A stretch of DNA of 38,993 nucleotides, taken from assembly GCA_031286325.1 (NCBI GenBank), contig JAITUT010000083.1, positions 1 through 38,993 of the forward strand, written 5' to 3'. Position numbers and translations under genes: made by a program. A model generated the notes under the pieces. It ran no database searches and was not told the origin of the DNA. It worked only from the letters and a program-made list of their open reading frames with translations. Every line of letters begins with the position of its first letter. The stretch's first letter is position 1. Of the stretch, positions 11,992-25,336 are shown piece after piece. The stretch is from Helicobacteraceae bacterium (GTDB lineage Bacteria > Campylobacterota > Campylobacteria > Campylobacterales > SZUA-545).

Positions 11992-12465
11992 CTATCGTTC
12001 GCACCGATCCGAGTCGTTATACGTCTTACCGCTTAAAAGCTCGTTGTAACGCCAATACGCGAATAAACGTTCGTCCGTGTTGGTTGTTTCAAGTTCCACA
12101 AAGAGCGAAGCTTCGTCATAACTTTGGCGATCGGCGAATGTCTCGCGCATACAGTTTAGGGCGTTTGCCATTTGAGCTCGCGCGATTTCGGCGGCTTTTT
12201 CGTCTTTTTGCCCGCCCGCTATGATCGCCGCTCCAAAGGCGCGAGCCGTTTTGATCATCGTCTCTTGCTCTTTGGCGTCGTTCGTGAAGCCGCGAATAGA
12301 GAGAGCGATGTCGTCTCGCATTAGATCGCCGTCTTTGTCCTCGCCTACGATCGCGTTATGATTGTTTTTGTTACCGCCGCCGCTACCGCCGCCTCCGCCG
12401 AAGCAACCGCCAAAGAGTGTTAATAAAAATACCGCGATTAACGCGAACTTTGTTTTAGTTTTCAT
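11992..12465 (-). CDS. EF-hand-like lipoprotein, cassette 1, distal gene
   Basis: A 157-residue lipoprotein: signal peptide ending in GGC (Cys21), then a Gly/Ser tether (GGGGGSGGG), then a loop DKDGDLMRDDIA that matches an EF-hand/dockerin-like calcium loop at positions 1, 3, 5 and 9 but lacks the final Glu. The remaining helical part carries the paralogous pattern ANALNCMRETF, NTDERLFAYWRYNELLSGKTY and a terminal Cys. The same pattern occurs in the next gene upstream and in the damaged copy at 22.5-23.1 kb. Its start overlaps the upstream stop by four bases. Function unknown; it may bind or protect against the hydrolase two genes upstream. Confidence 0.75.
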   Translation of the reverse strand: MKTKTKFALIAVFLLTLFGGCFGGGGGSGGGNKNNHNAIVGEDKDGDLMRDDIALSIRGFTNDAKEQETMIKTARAFGAAIIAGGQKDEKAAEIARAQMANALNCMRETFADRQSYDEASLFVELETTNTDERLFAYWRYNELLSGKTYNDSDRCER

Positions 12466-13469
12466 TTTTGATTCCTTAATGTATTAGTGTAATCGCAGTC
12501 CCATCTATTGTCGCGTTTTGGTTCTTTTTTTGCTTTACGAAAATATATTTCCGCCCATTCGCGCTCTCTCGTATTTAACATCAAAGTGTCAACCAAATAA
12601 TGCTCGGAAAAATCACTGCTTTTTGTAGTTTTCTGTTTCGCCATACACCGATCGGCTCTATCGTATTCCACGTTTGCCTTTTCAATTTCGTCTATATCTT
12701 TTGACGCGCCCGCAAGAATTATTTTTTGATAGCCTTTTGCTAATTGCAGCATCGCTTCTCTTAGCTCTATTTGAATATCAAGCGGCGCGTATTTCCAGAT
12801 CGCTCTTTCCGCATCGTCTCTTACGCCGTTTTCATTGCGATCTATTCCCACTAAAGTCGCTTTGCCCTCTTCGCCGGGATCGGGCGGCAAATCAGGATTT
12901 ATCTCTTCGGGAGCCATATTTTTATATTTTTCTTGGATTTCGCGATTTAATTCTTCATCGTAGAGGCAGGGGAAAGTATATTCTTCTTTATCGCGATAGG
13001 TATCGCCGCTTAACAATGCGTTATAATACCAATAGGCTTCCGATCTTTCTTCGGTATTTATCATTGCACCTTCTAATTTATCCCCATATTTTTGCCACTC
13101 TAGTACATATTTTCGCCAATCTAGTACAAGATCATTAAAGGCTGTATGCATACAGCTTACGGATCTGGACATTTCTTCATGTAATTCTTTCGCCTCTTTT
13201 TGGTCTAAAGCGTCTCCTACTATTATGGCTTTTTGATACCAGATCGCTTGTTGCTCTAACGCCTTTCTCTTTCTTATATCTTTTCTTTCGGGAAACCACT
13301 TATAAATTTTAATCTCAACATCGTCTCTAATTCCGTTATTATTAGCGTCTATCCCCTCTAATGTAGATCGGGAGGTAAAAAACCCCGGATCGGGCGGCAA
13401 TCCGGCGTCTTTAGGCAACGCGCAGCTTGCGGCAAAAAATATAAGAGGCAGAAATAAAAACTTTTTCAT
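12462..13469 (-). CDS. Double-repeat EF-hand-like lipoprotein, cassette 1
   Basis: A 335-residue lipoprotein (lipobox AASC, Cys16) built from two tandem copies of one domain. Each begins LPPDPG, then GID and a 12-residue loop: DANNNGIRDDVE (first) and DRNENGVRDDAE (second). Both fit the EF-hand loop consensus at positions 1, 3, 5, 6, 9 and 12. The first copy continues with SVSCMHTAF and EAYWYYNALLSGDTY, the second with DRCMAKQ and a diverged C-terminus. It overlaps the hydrolase stop and the next lipoprotein start by four bases each, so all three genes form one translationally coupled operon. It is probably periplasmic or outer-membrane anchored. Confidence 0.78.
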   Translation of the reverse strand: MKKFLFLPLIFFAASCALPKDAGLPPDPGFFTSRSTLEGIDANNNGIRDDVEIKIYKWFPERKDIRKRKALEQQAIWYQKAIIVGDALDQKEAKELHEEMSRSVSCMHTAFNDLVLDWRKYVLEWQKYGDKLEGAMINTEERSEAYWYYNALLSGDTYRDKEEYTFPCLYDEELNREIQEKYKNMAPEEINPDLPPDPGEEGKATLVGIDRNENGVRDDAERAIWKYAPLDIQIELREAMLQLAKGYQKIILAGASKDIDEIEKANVEYDRADRCMAKQKTTKSSDFSEHYLVDTLMLNTREREWAEIYFRKAKKEPKRDNRWDCDYTNTLRNQK

Positions 13470-14974
13470 TTATTCTCCCATTCTCCCGGATACTTTAGAG
13501 TTTTTATCAACTTATCAAAGTAAGCGTCAATTAAACCTCTGCTGGGCAAAGCCACAGTATAAGAACCCGCAGGGCAATCGTTCCCCGCGCCCAATAAAAA
13601 CTCAAATTCCGTGTCTTTCCACCAATAAGCTATGTTTACTATTCCATTAAAAAAATAGCCGTAGTATAAACTATGATTAAAGAAATCTCTTGCCGCGAAA
13701 GCGCAGGGAATATCATTATTGACGTTGCTTGGCAAAATCTCTAATCCCGCTGAAAGGAGCCAATTATACGCGCGGAGCGCGTTAATAACCAGATCGTCAT
13801 TAGCCGTTACATAGTAGTAATTTTTATTACTTTTAAGTCCCGCCGCGGAAGCAACCCCGATCATTCCGATCTGATTCGGATATTCTTTTTGCATTTCAAA
13901 CAAAACATAGTTCGCGAAGATATTGCCTTGGCTATGCGCGACAATAATTACTCTTTCGCCTTTTTCAAGACTATTTTTCACATTTTGCATTAGAATTGAG
14001 GTGTTTAAGCTCTCAATATCCTTAAAGCCGTATCGACCCATAAGATTTTTCATCTCTTCTTTAATCTCATCTTTCATTTTCACGTAATCAAGACATCTAG
14101 GATCGCTTTTGATCCAACGTTCTTGCTGGCACTTTTTCATAACCTCGTTTGCTTGAGCCATAGTAATGCTTTTCCCGGCTTTCTCAGCATATTTTTGTGA
14201 AAAAACTTCCACGAGATCGTAGACAAAACCAAAGCTAAAGTTATAGGCTGTTTCAAACTCTAATTTGTCGTGGATATAAGTTTCTTTTTTTTGTCCTTTA
14301 TATTTATCATTATATATACTGGCAATAAATCTTTTGCCGTCATCGGCGTCTTCGTTGGTGTTCATAATTCCGTTAAAATAATAAATGCGCGTAACTTTCT
14401 GCTCGCATTTTTTGGTTTTGGTATTGAAATATTTTCCATCATCACAAACTTCGGAAGCACCGCAATATTGATTAAAAAAACCAGGAGAGTTGCGAACAAA
14501 ATGATCAGAGCCATAATTAGAAGTAGAAGGAACAAGACTTAAAGCTCTAGCGTAAATAGAATCAAAAGTATCGCTAAATACAGGAATATATTGGGCTTGA
14601 ATAATAGTAGAAGAACCGTAAATCTGAAGAAAAAAAGAACCATCTGAATCTTCAATACAAGACGAATAAGCTACACTAGGAGTAGCATGAAGAGAAAAAT
14701 GACCTTCCCAAGCTCTCCAATGAGACAAACTAAAATAATAAACAGGAAGTACAGTAATTTTTCTAGAAACATCAGGCTTATTAGGAGAACTACAATAATA
14801 AAAAAAAGGACTTGAACCCGGATAAGGAAAATAATATCTATAGGAATAATCATAATCACCAGATGATGGATAACCAACATAAACATATTCAGAAAGATTA
14901 CAAGGTGGAGTATTAACATCTAGGCAAAAACCAATCTGGCAAAATAAAAAGATCAAAACCAAAATCTTTTTCAT
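13466..14974 (-). CDS. Secreted alpha/beta hydrolase (lipase-like), cassette 1
   Basis: A 502-residue exported protein. Residues 1-17 form a Sec signal. An aromatic and Cys-rich N-terminal region (about 20-190) precedes an alpha/beta-hydrolase core: strand IYYFNGIMN (about 197), nucleophile elbow VIIVAHSQGN with Ser348, acid candidate Asp393/394 in TANDDLV, and His434 in FFNHSLYYG. The order Ser-Asp-His matches the family. A helical insertion (about 255-335) separates the first strand from the elbow. The ATG start has AAGG nine bases upstream. The Cys content suggests disulfides outside the cytoplasm. The substrate is unknown; lipid or ester is likely. A paralogue with the same triad lies at 23.1-24.8 kb. 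Confidence 0.8.
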   Translation of the reverse strand: MKKILVLIFLFCQIGFCLDVNTPPCNLSEYVYVGYPSSGDYDYSYRYYFPYPGSSPFFYYCSSPNKPDVSRKITVLPVYYFSLSHWRAWEGHFSLHATPSVAYSSCIEDSDGSFFLQIYGSSTIIQAQYIPVFSDTFDSIYARALSLVPSTSNYGSDHFVRNSPGFFNQYCGASEVCDDGKYFNTKTKKCEQKVTRIYYFNGIMNTNEDADDGKRFIASIYNDKYKGQKKETYIHDKLEFETAYNFSFGFVYDLVEVFSQKYAEKAGKSITMAQANEVMKKCQQERWIKSDPRCLDYVKMKDEIKEEMKNLMGRYGFKDIESLNTSILMQNVKNSLEKGERVIIVAHSQGNIFANYVLFEMQKEYPNQIGMIGVASAAGLKSNKNYYYVTANDDLVINALRAYNWLLSAGLEILPSNVNNDIPCAFAARDFFNHSLYYGYFFNGIVNIAYWWKDTEFEFLLGAGNDCPAGSYTVALPSRGLIDAYFDKLIKTLKYPGEWENK

Positions 14975-14975
14975 T

Positions 14976-15218
14976 CTATCGCCTTAACAATGAAAACGCG
15001 GCGAAAAAGCCGGACATTATGATCGCTAGATACGCGATCACAGTAAAGAAATAGTTAAAAACCATATCTTGACTAACCAGAATGGCTTGAGCCTCGCTGT
15101 GGTTATAGAGAACACGCCCGCGTTGCTTACCGCCCGGTGTGAGGATCAGGCGGCAAGCGCGATCGCGCTCTCTATATGAAAGCCCCCGGCGGGCAGTTTG
15201 GACAAAGGACGCGGACAT
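14976..15218 (-). CDS. Small membrane protein ahead of the hydrolase
   Basis: An 80-residue frame beginning at ATG 15218 with GGAG six bases upstream and ending one base before the hydrolase start, so it looks like the first gene of cassette 1. The first half is basic and unremarkable; residues about 53-76 form one hydrophobic span (FNYFFTVIAYLAIIMSGFF), with LLRR at the end. No family is recognised. A hairpin with arms at 15126-15134 and 15149-15157 lies inside it. The second cassette lacks it, so it may be local rather than part of the system, or not a gene. Confidence 0.4.
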   Translation of the reverse strand: MSASFVQTARRGLSYRERDRACRLILTPGGKQRGRVLYNHSEAQAILVSQDMVFNYFFTVIAYLAIIMSGFFAAFSLLRR

Positions 15219-15254
15219 TATGAACTCCAAAAGACGCAATTTGAGTAATTCTAG

Positions 15255-15508
15255 CAAAGACAATCTAAAGCTTGTCAAGGGGTAAAGGCGAAAAATCAAA
15301 TTTTTCAAAGAATTTCAGAAATTGAGGGCGCAAAAACTATGAAAAGCCTAGCAGAAACGCTAGGCTTAACCACAAACAATATATACAACTACGAGAGCAG
15401 AAACGCCATTTCGCAAAAAGAGTCGCCGCGTGCGCCGCAAAAAATAGCGAAACCCCCTTTGAGCGCGCGGCGGAGGCTACAAAAGCGGCGATTGCGAAGC
15501 TTGGCTAA
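15255..15508 (+). pseudogene. Broken phage-type HTH repressor fragment
   Basis: An open frame with the sequence IFQRISEIEG, then MKSLAETLGLTTNNIYNYESR, reads as the N-terminal helix-turn-helix of a CI-like repressor. The only in-frame ATG (15339, with GAGGG upstream) falls after the first helix. Around 15415-15425 the natural continuation moves to another frame (VAACAAKNSETPFERAA, ending AAIAKLG), so one frameshift is needed. The 3' end overlaps the convergent hemerythrin gene. It is probably a relic of a mobile-element regulator, transcribed away from cassette 1. The reading as HTH is by pattern only. Confidence 0.45.
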
Positions 15509-21291: not shown

Positions 21292-21415
21292 AAATTGCCT
21301 AAGATCGTTAAAATCGCCGAAAATTCGCGCGGAAACCGTATTTTTAAGATATATTTGGAAAGCGCGGATTAGAGAGTCGCCGTTTTTGTTTGCCGCCCAA
21401 ACAACAGCTTAAAAT

Positions 21416-21637
21416 CGCGGCGATCACGATCGCGAAATAGCTTTCTTTTTCATTTATTTTCCGCTTTATAATCGCGCGGGTTTAGGTTATTTTCTAGGCG
21501 ATATGTCCTAAACCCAAGCATTGCGTCATAAGCCATAAACGCTTTAATTTTATCGAGCGTATTTCCGATTCCGCAATTTGCGCGGCGGAGCATTTTGGAA
21601 TGTTTCAAATATATGATTGGCTGGCGCGGCTAGATGT
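21416..21637 (-). pseudogene. Shredded third hydrolase-lipoprotein cassette, distal part
   Basis: No open gene, but the DNA aligns with the cassette at 22.5-24.8 kb. Positions 21416-21570 match 22496-22650 (3' end of the lipoprotein gene, including AACCCAAGCATTGCGTCATA). A deletion then joins CAATTTGCGCGG (matching about 22742) to 21590-21637, which matches 23412-23466 inside the hydrolase gene (GATTGGCTGGCG). The copy breaks at 21637, where mntP begins. It is a decayed tandem copy; the order of the pieces is the same as in cassette 2. Confidence 0.75.
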
Positions 21638-21639
21638 CG

Positions 21640-22206
21640 CTATCCGTTCGTGAGTAAATGCTCAATTAGTATTTTTAATCCCAGCGCGACAAGAATGAAT
21701 CCTCCGGCAAATTCCGCCTTTGACTTAAATTTTATTCCGAATATATGCCCAACCTTTACGCCGGCTATTGATACGCAAAAAGTTACCGCGCCGATTATTA
21801 TAATCGCCGTAAAGATATATATGTCAAAAAACGCGAATGTTATTCCTATCGCCAGCGCGTCTATGCTGGTCGCTATCGCAAATAACAACATTTTTATAAA
21901 TTGAAACGGGTTTTTATTCAACTCCTCCTTGTCTTTGGAGAAACTATCTTTTATCATTTTCCCGCCGATAAAAGCGAGAAGAATAAATACCGCCCAATGA
22001 TCCAAATGTTGAATTTTTTTTTCTTAGTTAATACCCGCGCCATATCCGATAAGCGGCATAAGAGCCTGAAAAAAACCAAAATATATGCCCGGAAGTATAA
22101 TTTCGGTAATTTTCGGTTTCTTTACCGATAAGCCTAAAGTTATTGAAACAGCAAAGGCGTCCATTGACAGACCAACCGCAATTACCAAAATTTCGAAGAA
22201 ACCCAC
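21640..22206 (-). pseudogene. mntP: MntP-type manganese exporter, interrupted by a stop
   Basis: MntP is a six-helix Mn(II) efflux pump with two similar halves. The first half has LSMDAFAVS, the second TSIDALAIG, both with the conserved Asp, and GYFG/FQALMPLIGY-type segments. The GTG start at 22206 has AGGGG eight bases upstream. The frame is broken only by one in-frame TAA at 22024-22026, after GYGAGIN; reading continues in the same frame with KIQHLDHWAVF. An A9 run (minus strand) follows the stop. Base composition is more AT-rich than neighbours. It sits inside the hydrolase relic, so it probably inserted later. A sequencing error at the stop is possible. Confidence 0.8.
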
Positions 22207-22235
22207 GCTAATACCCCTGTAGTGAAGTTACAAAA

Positions 22236-22292
22236 AACTATGAATTATTTTAAAACTTTTCTCGCTGTCGTTTTGAGCGTATTTTCGCAAAA
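22236..22292 (-). pseudogene. Hydrolase relic fragment, proximal part of third cassette
   Basis: TATGAATTATTTTAA at about 22239 continues the hydrolase match where the 21637 fragment stops: it aligns with 23464-23510 of the cassette 2 hydrolase gene. It then jumps to the segment matching the gene's 5' flank (24788 onward). The mntP gene separates the two relic fragments, so the insertion split an already homologous sequence. Confidence 0.65.
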
Positions 22293-22503
22293 TTTCTTTT
22301 CCGATAAGAAAGCGAAATTGTATATAGAGTTTCCTTAAACTAACTTTTGAGATATATTTTGCTTGCGGTCACGGAAGTTCTCTCGCGTCGCAAAGCGGGG
22401 CGTTAAGCGACGGGTAATTTTGCGGCGACGTTAAGCGCGTTTTTTTCCAGAGTATAGAGCTCGTAGCGGATATTTTTGTATTTCGCGCTCTCTTTCGCGG
22501 CGA
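22293..22503 (-). repeat. Direct repeat, copy A: thiD2 3' end plus flank
   Basis: About 210 bases that match 24792-25005 in the same orientation at roughly 88-90 percent by eye. Positions 22403-22503 correspond to the last ~35 codons of the thiD2-like gene (SAKYKNIRYELYTLEKNAL, still open in frame) and 22293-22402 to its downstream flank. The repeat brackets the cassette 2 genes, the layout expected for a tandem duplication of a unit comprising thiD2 3' end, hydrolase and lipoprotein. Confidence 0.85.
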
Positions 22504-22529
22504 TCACGATCGCGAAAGTAACTTTCTTT

Positions 22530-23087
22530 TCATTTATTTTCCGCTTTATAATCGCACGGGTTTGGATTTTTTTCCAAGCGATATGTTCTAAACCCAAGCA
22601 TTGCGTCATAAGCCATAAAGGCTTGAATTCTATCGGGTGTATTTTTGCTCAGATCTCCTACAAAGTCAGTCTCTTCTTTCTCTTTTTCAAACGAAAAAAC
22701 TTTCCACATACACTCCAAAGCGCGAAAAGACTCTTTTTCGGCAATTTGCGCGGCTTCTTTGTCGCCTTTTTTGCCCGCGTTAAGCAAAGCTTGCGCCCAT
22801 TTTGCTTTTTGCAACAGCGACTCTCGCTTTTCTTCATCTTTCGCTTTTGAATAACGTTTATAGATCGCGATCTCTATATCATCGCGAACACCGTTATTGT
22901 TGGCGTCTATCCCCTCTACAGTCGCTTTTCCGGCTTTGCCCGGATCGGGCGGTAAGTTATAAGCCGATAGTTAAGGATCAATATTGTTACTGCCGCCGCT
23001 ACCGCCAACGCAACCGTCGAGCAGTAGCATATACAGAACCCCGTCGATTAAAACAATCGCGCTATTTTTGATCTCTTTTGATCGCAT
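22530..23087 (-). pseudogene. EF-hand-like lipoprotein, cassette 2, with in-frame stop
   Basis: The frame begins at ATG 23087 (AAGGGGG five bases upstream, inside the hydrolase 3' end) and encodes a lipoprotein-like start with LLLDGC followed by GGSGGS. A TAA at 22971-22973 interrupts it. Directly after, in the same frame, come LPPDPG, GID and the EF-hand loop DANNNGVRDDIE, then a helical region with ALECMWKVF, AFMAYDAMLGFRTY and CDYKAENK. Domain order equals the cassette 1 lipoproteins. One substitution would restore about 184 residues. Loss of function, readthrough, or an assembly error are all possible. Confidence 0.7.
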
Positions 23088-24791: not shown

Positions 24792-25005
24792 ATTCCTTTT
24801 TTCCGACAAGAAAGCAAAATTATATATAAAGCTTTCTTAAACTAAGCTTTGAGATATATTTTGCTTGCGGTCACGGAAGTTCTCTCGCATCGCAAAGCGG
24901 GGCGTTAAGCGGCGGGTAATTTTGCGGCGAGGCTAAGCGCGTTTTTTTCCAGAGTGTAGATCTCGTAGCGGATATTTTTGTATTTCGCGCTTTCTTTCGC
25001 GGAGA
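24792..25005 (-). repeat. Direct repeat, copy B: thiD2 3' end plus flank
   Basis: Partner of 22293-22503. It includes the true 3' end of the thiD2-like gene (24905-25005) and the 24792-24904 flank that carries TTGAGATATATTTTGCTTGC-type sequence found in both copies. The hydrolase start lies at its inner edge, so part of the promoter or leader of cassette 2 is contained in the repeat. Confidence 0.85.
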
Positions 25006-25336
25006 TCGCGGCGAGATCGCCCTCAAAAATTTTGAAAATTTCCTCCAAAACGCGGGCGGCTTCTTGCGCTCTTTTGAAGTTTGCGATCAAAACATTTTTA
25101 ATTTCAAAAGAGCGATCGTTTTCTCCTGCGGAATTTGCGCGTAAAACATCATTTTCAGAATCGCGCGAATTTAACAACTCGTCGTAAATTTCCGGTATGC
25201 GGGAAATATGCCGCAACTCTTTTAATTTTTTCGCCAAAATTTCATCATTTAAGATATATCTGCAAATGTCTTCAACCACGCGAATTCCTTCGCGCAATCT
25301 ATTCAAATTCGCGTCTATAATTCGCGCGTCTTTCAC
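24905..25336 (-). CDS. thiD2: Stand-alone ThiD2-type HMP-P kinase domain
   Basis: Resembles the domain fused to the N-terminus of ThiE in some bacteria, known as ThiD2, which phosphorylates hydroxymethylpyrimidine phosphate to the diphosphate for thiamin synthesis. The opening RIIDANLNRLREGIRVVEDICRY is the family signature; KELRH and FKRAQEAARVLEEIFK follow. About 143 aa. The likely start is GTG 25336 (TAGG eight bases upstream, overlapping the preceding stop); TTG 25342 is the alternative. It is the last gene of a tight unit with the two genes upstream. Its 3' end is duplicated at 22.4 kb. Confidence 0.82.
   Translation of the reverse strand: MKDARIIDANLNRLREGIRVVEDICRYILNDEILAKKLKELRHISRIPEIYDELLNSRDSENDVLRANSAGENDRSFEIKNVLIANFKRAQEAARVLEEIFKIFEGDLAAISAKESAKYKNIRYEIYTLEKNALSLAAKLPAA

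What the first reader, a model, noticed from the sequence alone, without database searches (positions are those of the whole stretch)
11992..15218. Operon of a secreted lipase-like hydrolase with EF-hand-loop lipoproteins, a candidate undescribed system
A signal-peptide hydrolase with a Ser348-Asp393/394-His434 triad is followed, with 4-base overlaps, by two lipoproteins that share a domain beginning LPPDPG-GID and a 12-residue loop fitting the EF-hand consensus. The pairing recurs at 22.5-24.8 kb and as a relic at 21.4-22.3 kb, so the genes travel together. Reported secreted lipases with cognate lipoproteins include effector-immunity pairs (for example type VI Tle/Tli), but a lipase with a dedicated folding or anchoring partner would look the same. 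Duplicated and diversified lipoproteins favour a protection role; that is inference.
Basis: partly seen in the sequence, partly recalled or inferred. Interest (0 to 1): 0.8.

Follow-up and report, generated by a model that had tools for sequence, protein, structure and literature searches.

The report
Lipase-like exoenzyme with dedicated calcium-loop partner
A secreted lipase-like enzyme and an exported partner protein carrying a calcium-binding-type loop are encoded side by side in at least four bacterial phyla, are fused into one protein in Deinococcus, and in three lineages sit inside the genes of a protein-secretion machine, so they form a real, undescribed enzyme-partner module rather than the toxin-antidote pair first suspected.

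Summary
The hydrolase (13466-14974, minus strand; Ser348, Asp394, His434) overlaps by 4 bases with a two-domain lipoprotein, which overlaps with a one-domain lipoprotein. A second, broken copy and a relic lie at 21.4-25.0 kb. Neither family is in Pfam, NCBIfam, PADLOC or, by sequence, the PDB.

The pairing is real. In a 399-genome order survey, 55 of 60 hydrolase loci have the partner within 2.5 kb on the same strand; a 56th has a partner fragment at its contig end, three more are contig ends and one is a weak hit. Pairs recur on plasmids of beta- and gammaproteobacteria. Three Deinococcus plasmids carry partner domain plus hydrolase in one polypeptide; a Nitrospirota plasmid has a frame-split fusion.

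A T6SS effector-immunity reading is not supported: T6SS is absent from the window genome and 31 of 33 carriers tested, the hydrolase has its own signal peptide, the partner is more conserved than the enzyme, and it can be fused to it. In three lineages the pair sits inside or beside type II secretion operons. Best reading: a T2SS-exported lipase-like exoenzyme with a dedicated folding, activating or anchoring partner, analogous but not homologous to LipA-Lif. Unpaired partner genes keep an inhibitor role possible.

The parts
13466..14974 (-). Secreted lipase-like alpha/beta hydrolase, 502 aa: signal peptide, phage-derived N-domain (about residues 1-178), hydrolase core (about 180-492) with Ser348-Asp394-His434
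13931..13933 (-). Codon of the catalytic Ser348 in AHSQGN
12462..13469 (-). Partner lipoprotein with two calcium-loop domains, 335 aa, lipobox FAASC; overlaps the hydrolase gene by 4 bases
   Evidence: (E 2e-49 and 3.5e-43)
11992..12465 (-). Second partner lipoprotein, one divergent domain, 157 aa, lipobox LFGGC; overlaps the first by 4 bases
   Evidence: E 4.9e-18
14939..15330 (-). Remnant of a filamentous phage: 5' end of an integrase gene joined to a small membrane-protein ORF and the start of the coat/adsorption-like gene; about 90% identical to contig C83 and to two pieces of the prophage on C9
23062..24809 (-). Second hydrolase copy, decayed (frame-split between 24396 and 24162; active-site motif reads AYSQGN)
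22530..23087 (-). Second copy of the partner lipoprotein, decayed (in-frame TAA at 22971-22973)
21415..22300 (-). Relic of a further copy: fragments of partner and hydrolase around a broken mntP-like gene
22297..22508 (-). Duplicated 3' end of the neighbouring gene (92% identical to 24799-25010), marking the duplication that made the extra copy

Best explanation
The two genes encode an exoenzyme and its dedicated partner. The lipase-like serine hydrolase is exported by Sec and, most likely, carried across the outer membrane by the type II secretion system. The partner is an all-helical domain with one calcium-type loop and two conserved cysteines, held by a lipid anchor, joined to Ig-like domains or, in Deinococcus, fused to the enzyme. 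It binds the hydrolase in the periplasm or at the cell surface and helps it fold, become active or stay anchored, in the manner of a steric chaperone such as Lif. Shown here: gene linkage, export signals, fold and catalytic residues of the hydrolase, natural fusions, placement in T2SS operons. Inferred: physical binding, calcium binding, the folding or activating role, and a lipid-ester substrate.
For: Linkage: 55 of 60 hydrolase loci have a partner within 2.5 kb on the same strand, and all 36 genomes with a hydrolase have a partner (hypergeometric p 5e-34). The C62 exception has a partner fragment at the contig end, three others are contig ends and one is a weak hit. Of 72 distinct pairs, 68 are fused, overlap or lie within 13 bases; in 62 the partner gene comes first. 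Breadth: pairs on plasmids of Cupriavidus, Paraburkholderia, Aeromonas, Methylibium, Comamonas, Photobacterium and Vibrio. Fusions: three Deinococcus plasmid proteins and a frame-split one in Manganitrophus. T2SS: in L234 the order is partner, hydrolase, gspG-H-F-K-L-M-N-C-D-E-I with 70 bases to gspG; in L235/L087 the pair lies between gspH and gspF; in L236 between divergent gsp blocks. GspD above cut-off in 23 of 29 carriers against 9 of 29 non-carriers, Fisher p 5e-4, not corrected for phylogeny. Fold: core modelled well, best PDB match Archaeoglobus lipase 2zyr, E 2e-4. Partner modelled at pLDDT 93.5, all helix. Partner more conserved than enzyme (34% against 27% mean identity; distance correlation 0.78, 0 of 1000 permutations).
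Against: 63 of 117 partner clusters have no detectable hydrolase, including a row of four tandem partner lipoproteins in a complete chromosome: a pure chaperone should not outlive its client. A solo partner also occurs in Vibrio penaeicida beside alginate lyases. A few hydrolases have lost the catalytic Ser yet keep their partner. Most module copies are not next to T2SS genes.
Confidence: 0.6

Rival explanations
1. Effector-immunity: the hydrolase is an antibacterial lipase and the lipoproteins are antidotes that inhibit it at the membrane; unpaired lipoproteins are orphan immunity genes.
For: The hydrolase is almost never without a partner while partners often occur alone, even in tandem arrays. 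Lipoprotein immunity to T6SS lipases is documented (PMC9860674), as are orphan immunity arrays (PMC12247911). Copies are patchy, duplicated and decaying.
Against: No T6SS in the window genome or in 31 of 33 carriers. The hydrolase has a Sec signal and no delivery domain was recognised. Partner and enzyme are one polypeptide in Deinococcus. The partner is more conserved than the enzyme. Partner domains are often attached to Ig-like domains instead of a lipid anchor. Some enzymes are catalytically dead but still paired.
Confidence: 0.2
2. Surface complex: the partner is a calcium-stabilised structural or anchoring subunit that holds the enzyme on the cell surface for attachment or for scavenging lipids or polyesters; folding help is not its role.
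For: Several hydrolases are 1,100-2,500 aa proteins, some with cadherin and LVIVD repeats. Partners are lipoproteins or carry Big_2/Big_5 domains. A few hydrolases have lost the catalytic Ser but keep their partner. Solo partners could anchor other proteins.
Against: Two of the three Deinococcus fusions lack a lipobox, so anchoring is not always the point. The partner gene comes first and overlaps, which suits a folding helper as well.
Confidence: 0.15
3. No functional pair: the genes are linked by shared mobility only.
For: Copies lie on plasmids and on phage remnants in this genome.
Against: Linkage with overlapping frames persists at about 27% mean identity of the enzyme across four phyla, with fusions.
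Confidence: 0.03

Closest known systems
LipA-Lif (LipH) lipase and lipase-specific foldase of Pseudomonas and Burkholderia
   Same: Sec-exported alpha/beta hydrolase lipase; dedicated membrane-tethered helical partner in the same operon; T2SS context; steric chaperones may act in trans or as a propeptide in cis (PMC13381987, PMC3352829)
   Different: Neither protein matches the Lif or lipase families by profile; the partner carries a calcium-type loop and two conserved cysteines, is a lipoprotein or Ig-fused protein, is usually encoded first, and also occurs alone
T6SS lipase effectors Tle with Tli lipoprotein immunity
   Same: Lipase-like enzyme encoded beside a lipoprotein; one Tli both activates and neutralises its Tle (PMC10294624)
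   Different: No T6SS in nearly all carriers, own signal peptide on the enzyme, partner fused to the enzyme in Deinococcus, partner better conserved than the enzyme
Archaeoglobus fulgidus lipase (2zyr) and the cutinase/LipA fold
   Same: Best structural match of the hydrolase core
   Different: About 14% identity; no sequence relation detected; no known partner of this kind
Dockerin-like and EF-hand calcium loops
   Same: DxNxNGxxDDxE loop followed by a helix
   Different: Single loop with no proper entering helix; the domain as a whole has no significant PDB match

Membership tests
alpha/beta hydrolase (lipase-like) | Nucleophile elbow and Ser-Asp-His triad in order | tested here: met
   Ser348 in 50/56, Asp394 in 56/56, His434 in 52/56
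alpha/beta hydrolase (lipase-like) | alpha/beta hydrolase fold | tested here: met
   Model core (mature residues about 162-473) matches A. fulgidus lipase, E 2e-4, then B. subtilis lipase and cutinases more weakly; sequence profiles only weak, DUF676 E 0.015
alpha/beta hydrolase (lipase-like) | Lipid-ester hydrolysis | not testable with these tools
   Needs an enzyme assay
EF-hand protein | 12-residue loop with ligands at 1, 3, 5, 9 and 12 | tested here: met
   Loop conserved in nearly all of 82 domains
EF-hand protein | Helix-loop-helix, usually paired | tested here: not met
   Model has an exiting helix (30-39) but no entering helix beyond residues 11-14, and one loop per domain
Lif lipase foldase | Match to a known lipase-chaperone profile | tested here: not met
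   No Pfam or NCBIfam hit to such a family
Lif lipase foldase | Operon with a Sec-exported lipase and membrane tether | tested here: met
Lif lipase foldase | Client exported by T2SS | tested here: inconclusive
   Pair inside or beside T2SS operons in three lineages; GspD enriched in carriers; most copies elsewhere
Lif lipase foldase | Folding or activation of the client | not testable with these tools
   Needs expression with and without the partner
T6SS Tle/Tli | T6SS in the same genome | tested here: not met
   VipB absent from the window genome and 31 of 33 carriers
T6SS Tle/Tli | Effector without its own Sec signal | tested here: not met
   Signal-peptide-like N-termini on the window hydrolase and on 48 of 72 paired hydrolases by a simple pattern scan, the rest unclear or cut
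T6SS Tle/Tli | Antidote neutralises the enzyme | not testable with these tools
   Needs a toxicity and rescue assay

The most novel reading that the evidence does not exclude
A previously undescribed class of lipase helper: a calcium-loop helical domain, unrelated to Lif, that folds, activates or controls a widespread family of secreted hydrolases in trans (lipoprotein or Ig-anchored) or in cis (N-terminal domain), exported by type II secretion, with solo copies that may control other enzymes.
Probability: 0.4. Interest if true: 0.75.

Novelty: new variant of a known kind. Interest (0 to 1): 0.62.

Why it matters
Two protein families without a name in Pfam, NCBIfam or the PDB turn out to be a conserved pair in Campylobacterota, Pseudomonadota, Deinococcota and Nitrospirota. 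The pair gives a concrete handle on T2SS substrates in Campylobacterales, where such operons exist but cargo is little studied (own knowledge). If the partner is a chaperone, it is a second, independent solution to the problem that Lif solves for LipA, and a useful tag for finding and producing new secreted lipases. The natural fusions make the hypothesis testable with one protein.

Tried and rejected
A T6SS Tle/Tli pair was rejected as a family label. Anti-phage defence: no PADLOC match. Relatives of the partner on viral contigs: none confirmed. A single-protein scan of genome contigs with the hydrolase found nothing; the partner-domain alignment worked. Solved structures by sequence: nothing meaningful for either family. 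A solved fold like the partner domain: none significant. Literature searches found no paper on this pair, but the library lacks most subscription journals. A tRNA next to the phage remnant as insertion site: none found. Whether the phage-like N-domain is general in the genus: it was found only in this genome.

Full report
What is in the window. The hydrolase is 502 aa with a signal peptide; the two lipoproteins are 335 and 157 aa. Ser348, Asp393/394 and His434 were read correctly. In 56 relatives Asp394 is invariant, Ser is present in 50 and His in 52. The first lipoprotein carries two copies of the domain, the second one divergent copy. The copy at 22.5-24.8 kb is broken in both genes, and the relic at 21.4-22.3 kb consists of short fragments at 76-90% identity around a broken mntP-like gene. 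A 92% identical repeat (22297-22508 and 24799-25010) shows that the tail of a neighbouring gene was duplicated with it.

Known families. Pfam, NCBIfam and PADLOC give no family for either protein above cut-off; the hydrolase touches DUF676 at E 0.015. The modelled hydrolase core (mature residues about 162-473) matches the Archaeoglobus fulgidus lipase at E 2e-4, then more weakly Bacillus lipase and cutinases. The partner domain is modelled with high confidence (pLDDT 93.5) as five longer helices after a loop segment and has no significant PDB match. The loop fits the EF-hand consensus but lacks a proper entering helix.

The genome. The window is contig C64 of a Campylobacterales genome; relatives in the same genus match contigs of 'Helicobacteraceae bacterium' MAGs (for example G003 contig C46 and JAISMA010000116.1 have the same length of 12,870 bases). 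That these are termite-gut MAGs is my own reading of the sample codes. The genome has hydrolases on C64 (two), C83, C1 and C62, and ten matches to the partner domain.

Linkage. In 399 genomes of the order, 64 have the partner domain and 40 the hydrolase by the tool's tally. Leaving out the weakest listed places, 55 of 60 hydrolase loci have a partner within 2.5 kb on the same strand, and all 36 hydrolase genomes have a partner (hypergeometric p 5e-34). Of the five exceptions, C62 has a partner fragment reaching the contig end, three others lie at contig ends and one is a weak partial hit. Of 72 distinct pairs, 62 have the partner first, 8 the hydrolase first (the window type, seen in the window's family) and 2 are fused in that set; nearly all overlap or are within 13 bases. 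The reverse does not hold: 63 of 117 partner clusters have no hydrolase nearby, some in complete chromosomes.

Outside the order. A hydrolase query against plasmids found relatives in Cupriavidus, Paraburkholderia, Aeromonas, Photobacterium, Vibrio, Candidatus Manganitrophus and Deinococcus. In the Proteobacteria the gene just upstream, overlapping by a few bases and annotated only as hypothetical or wrongly as ParA, is a partner domain with E 1e-18 to 1e-26. A wider query added Methylibium and Comamonas. In three Deinococcus plasmids the partner domain and the hydrolase are one protein; one of the three has a lipobox. The Manganitrophus gene is the same fusion with a frame break. Solo partners exist in Vibrio penaeicida and apparently in some Aeromonas plasmids.

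Secretion context. The T6SS sheath protein VipB is absent from the window genome and from 31 of 33 carriers, which removes the Tle/Tli route for nearly all. By contrast, in L234 the pair is the head of a complete T2SS operon (70 bases to gspG), in L235/L087 it sits between gspH and gspF, and in L236 (Sulfurospirillum arcachonense) between divergent gsp blocks (Pfam confirms T2SSG, T2SSF, secretin and T2SSE in L234). The three junctions differ, which suggests separate arrivals; this is inference. GspD reaches the family cut-off in 23 of 29 carriers and 9 of 29 non-carriers (Fisher p 5e-4, not corrected for relatedness). The window genome has such a GspD on contig C85.

Evolutionary pattern. Partner domains are on average 34% identical between pairs and hydrolases 27%, with strongly correlated distances (r 0.78, 0 of 1000 permutations). 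Correlation is expected for linked genes, but a partner more conserved than the enzyme is not what an arms race would give. The fusions, the Ig-like attachments and the few catalytically dead but still paired enzymes also argue against a simple antidote.

Mechanism. Most likely the hydrolase passes Sec, meets the partner in the periplasm, is folded, activated or held by it, and is then exported or displayed, in many cases by T2SS. This is how LipA and its foldase work (PMC13381987); steric chaperones are also known as propeptides in cis (PMC3352829), which matches the Deinococcus fusions. What is shown is linkage, export signals, fold, fusions and operon context; binding, calcium dependence and activity are inferred. 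The unpaired partners are the main unsolved fact. An inhibitor role, or a dual role as described for one Tli (PMC10294624), remains possible.

A second layer in this genome. The 392 bases upstream of and into the hydrolase start (14939-15330) are about 90% identical to the same place at the C83 hydrolase and to two separate pieces of a filamentous prophage on contig C9 with integrase, Zot/pI and pIV-type secretin. The first 178 residues of the hydrolase align with the first 172 of the prophage's coat/adsorption-like 614-aa protein (26% identity, E 8e-5, 0 of 1000 shuffles). So in this genome the hydrolase carries a phage-type N-domain and stands where the phage gene stood. This domain was found in none of the 16 relatives searched.

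Noticed in passing
window 14939-15330; L037 8007-8410; L038 239-7085: Remnant of a filamentous phage (integrase start joined to a small membrane ORF) directly upstream of two hydrolase genes; the hydrolase N-domain resembles the phage's adsorption-like protein. A prophage with these genes sits on contig C9.
   Followed up: partly
L232 3904-6216 (G191): Row of four tandem partner lipoproteins without any hydrolase in a complete chromosome.
   Followed up: partly
L042 6018-7529, L094/L098 6483-8288, L113 6473-12406: Hydrolases that lost the catalytic Ser (Gly or Ala) but keep a partner gene next door.
   Followed up: partly
L046 5348-11350, L235 8908-16467: Giant hydrolases (2,000-2,519 aa) with cadherin-like and LVIVD repeats behind the hydrolase domain.
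   Followed up: partly
L214 3657-4277, L215 3433-4011, L231 3812-4402: Diverged solo subfamily of the partner domain next to a conserved metallophosphatase-like gene.
   Followed up: no
L198 4887-5435 (Vibrio penaeicida plasmid): Solo partner-domain protein among alginate lyase genes.
   Followed up: partly
window 21640-22260: Broken mntP-like manganese exporter gene lying inside the relic copy.
   Followed up: no
L202 1244-2469, L205 1869-2468: Partner-domain lipoproteins on Photobacterium and Vibrio plasmids are annotated as chromosome partitioning protein ParA, a likely misannotation; Photobacterium has a second partner copy with a hydrolase relic.
   Followed up: no
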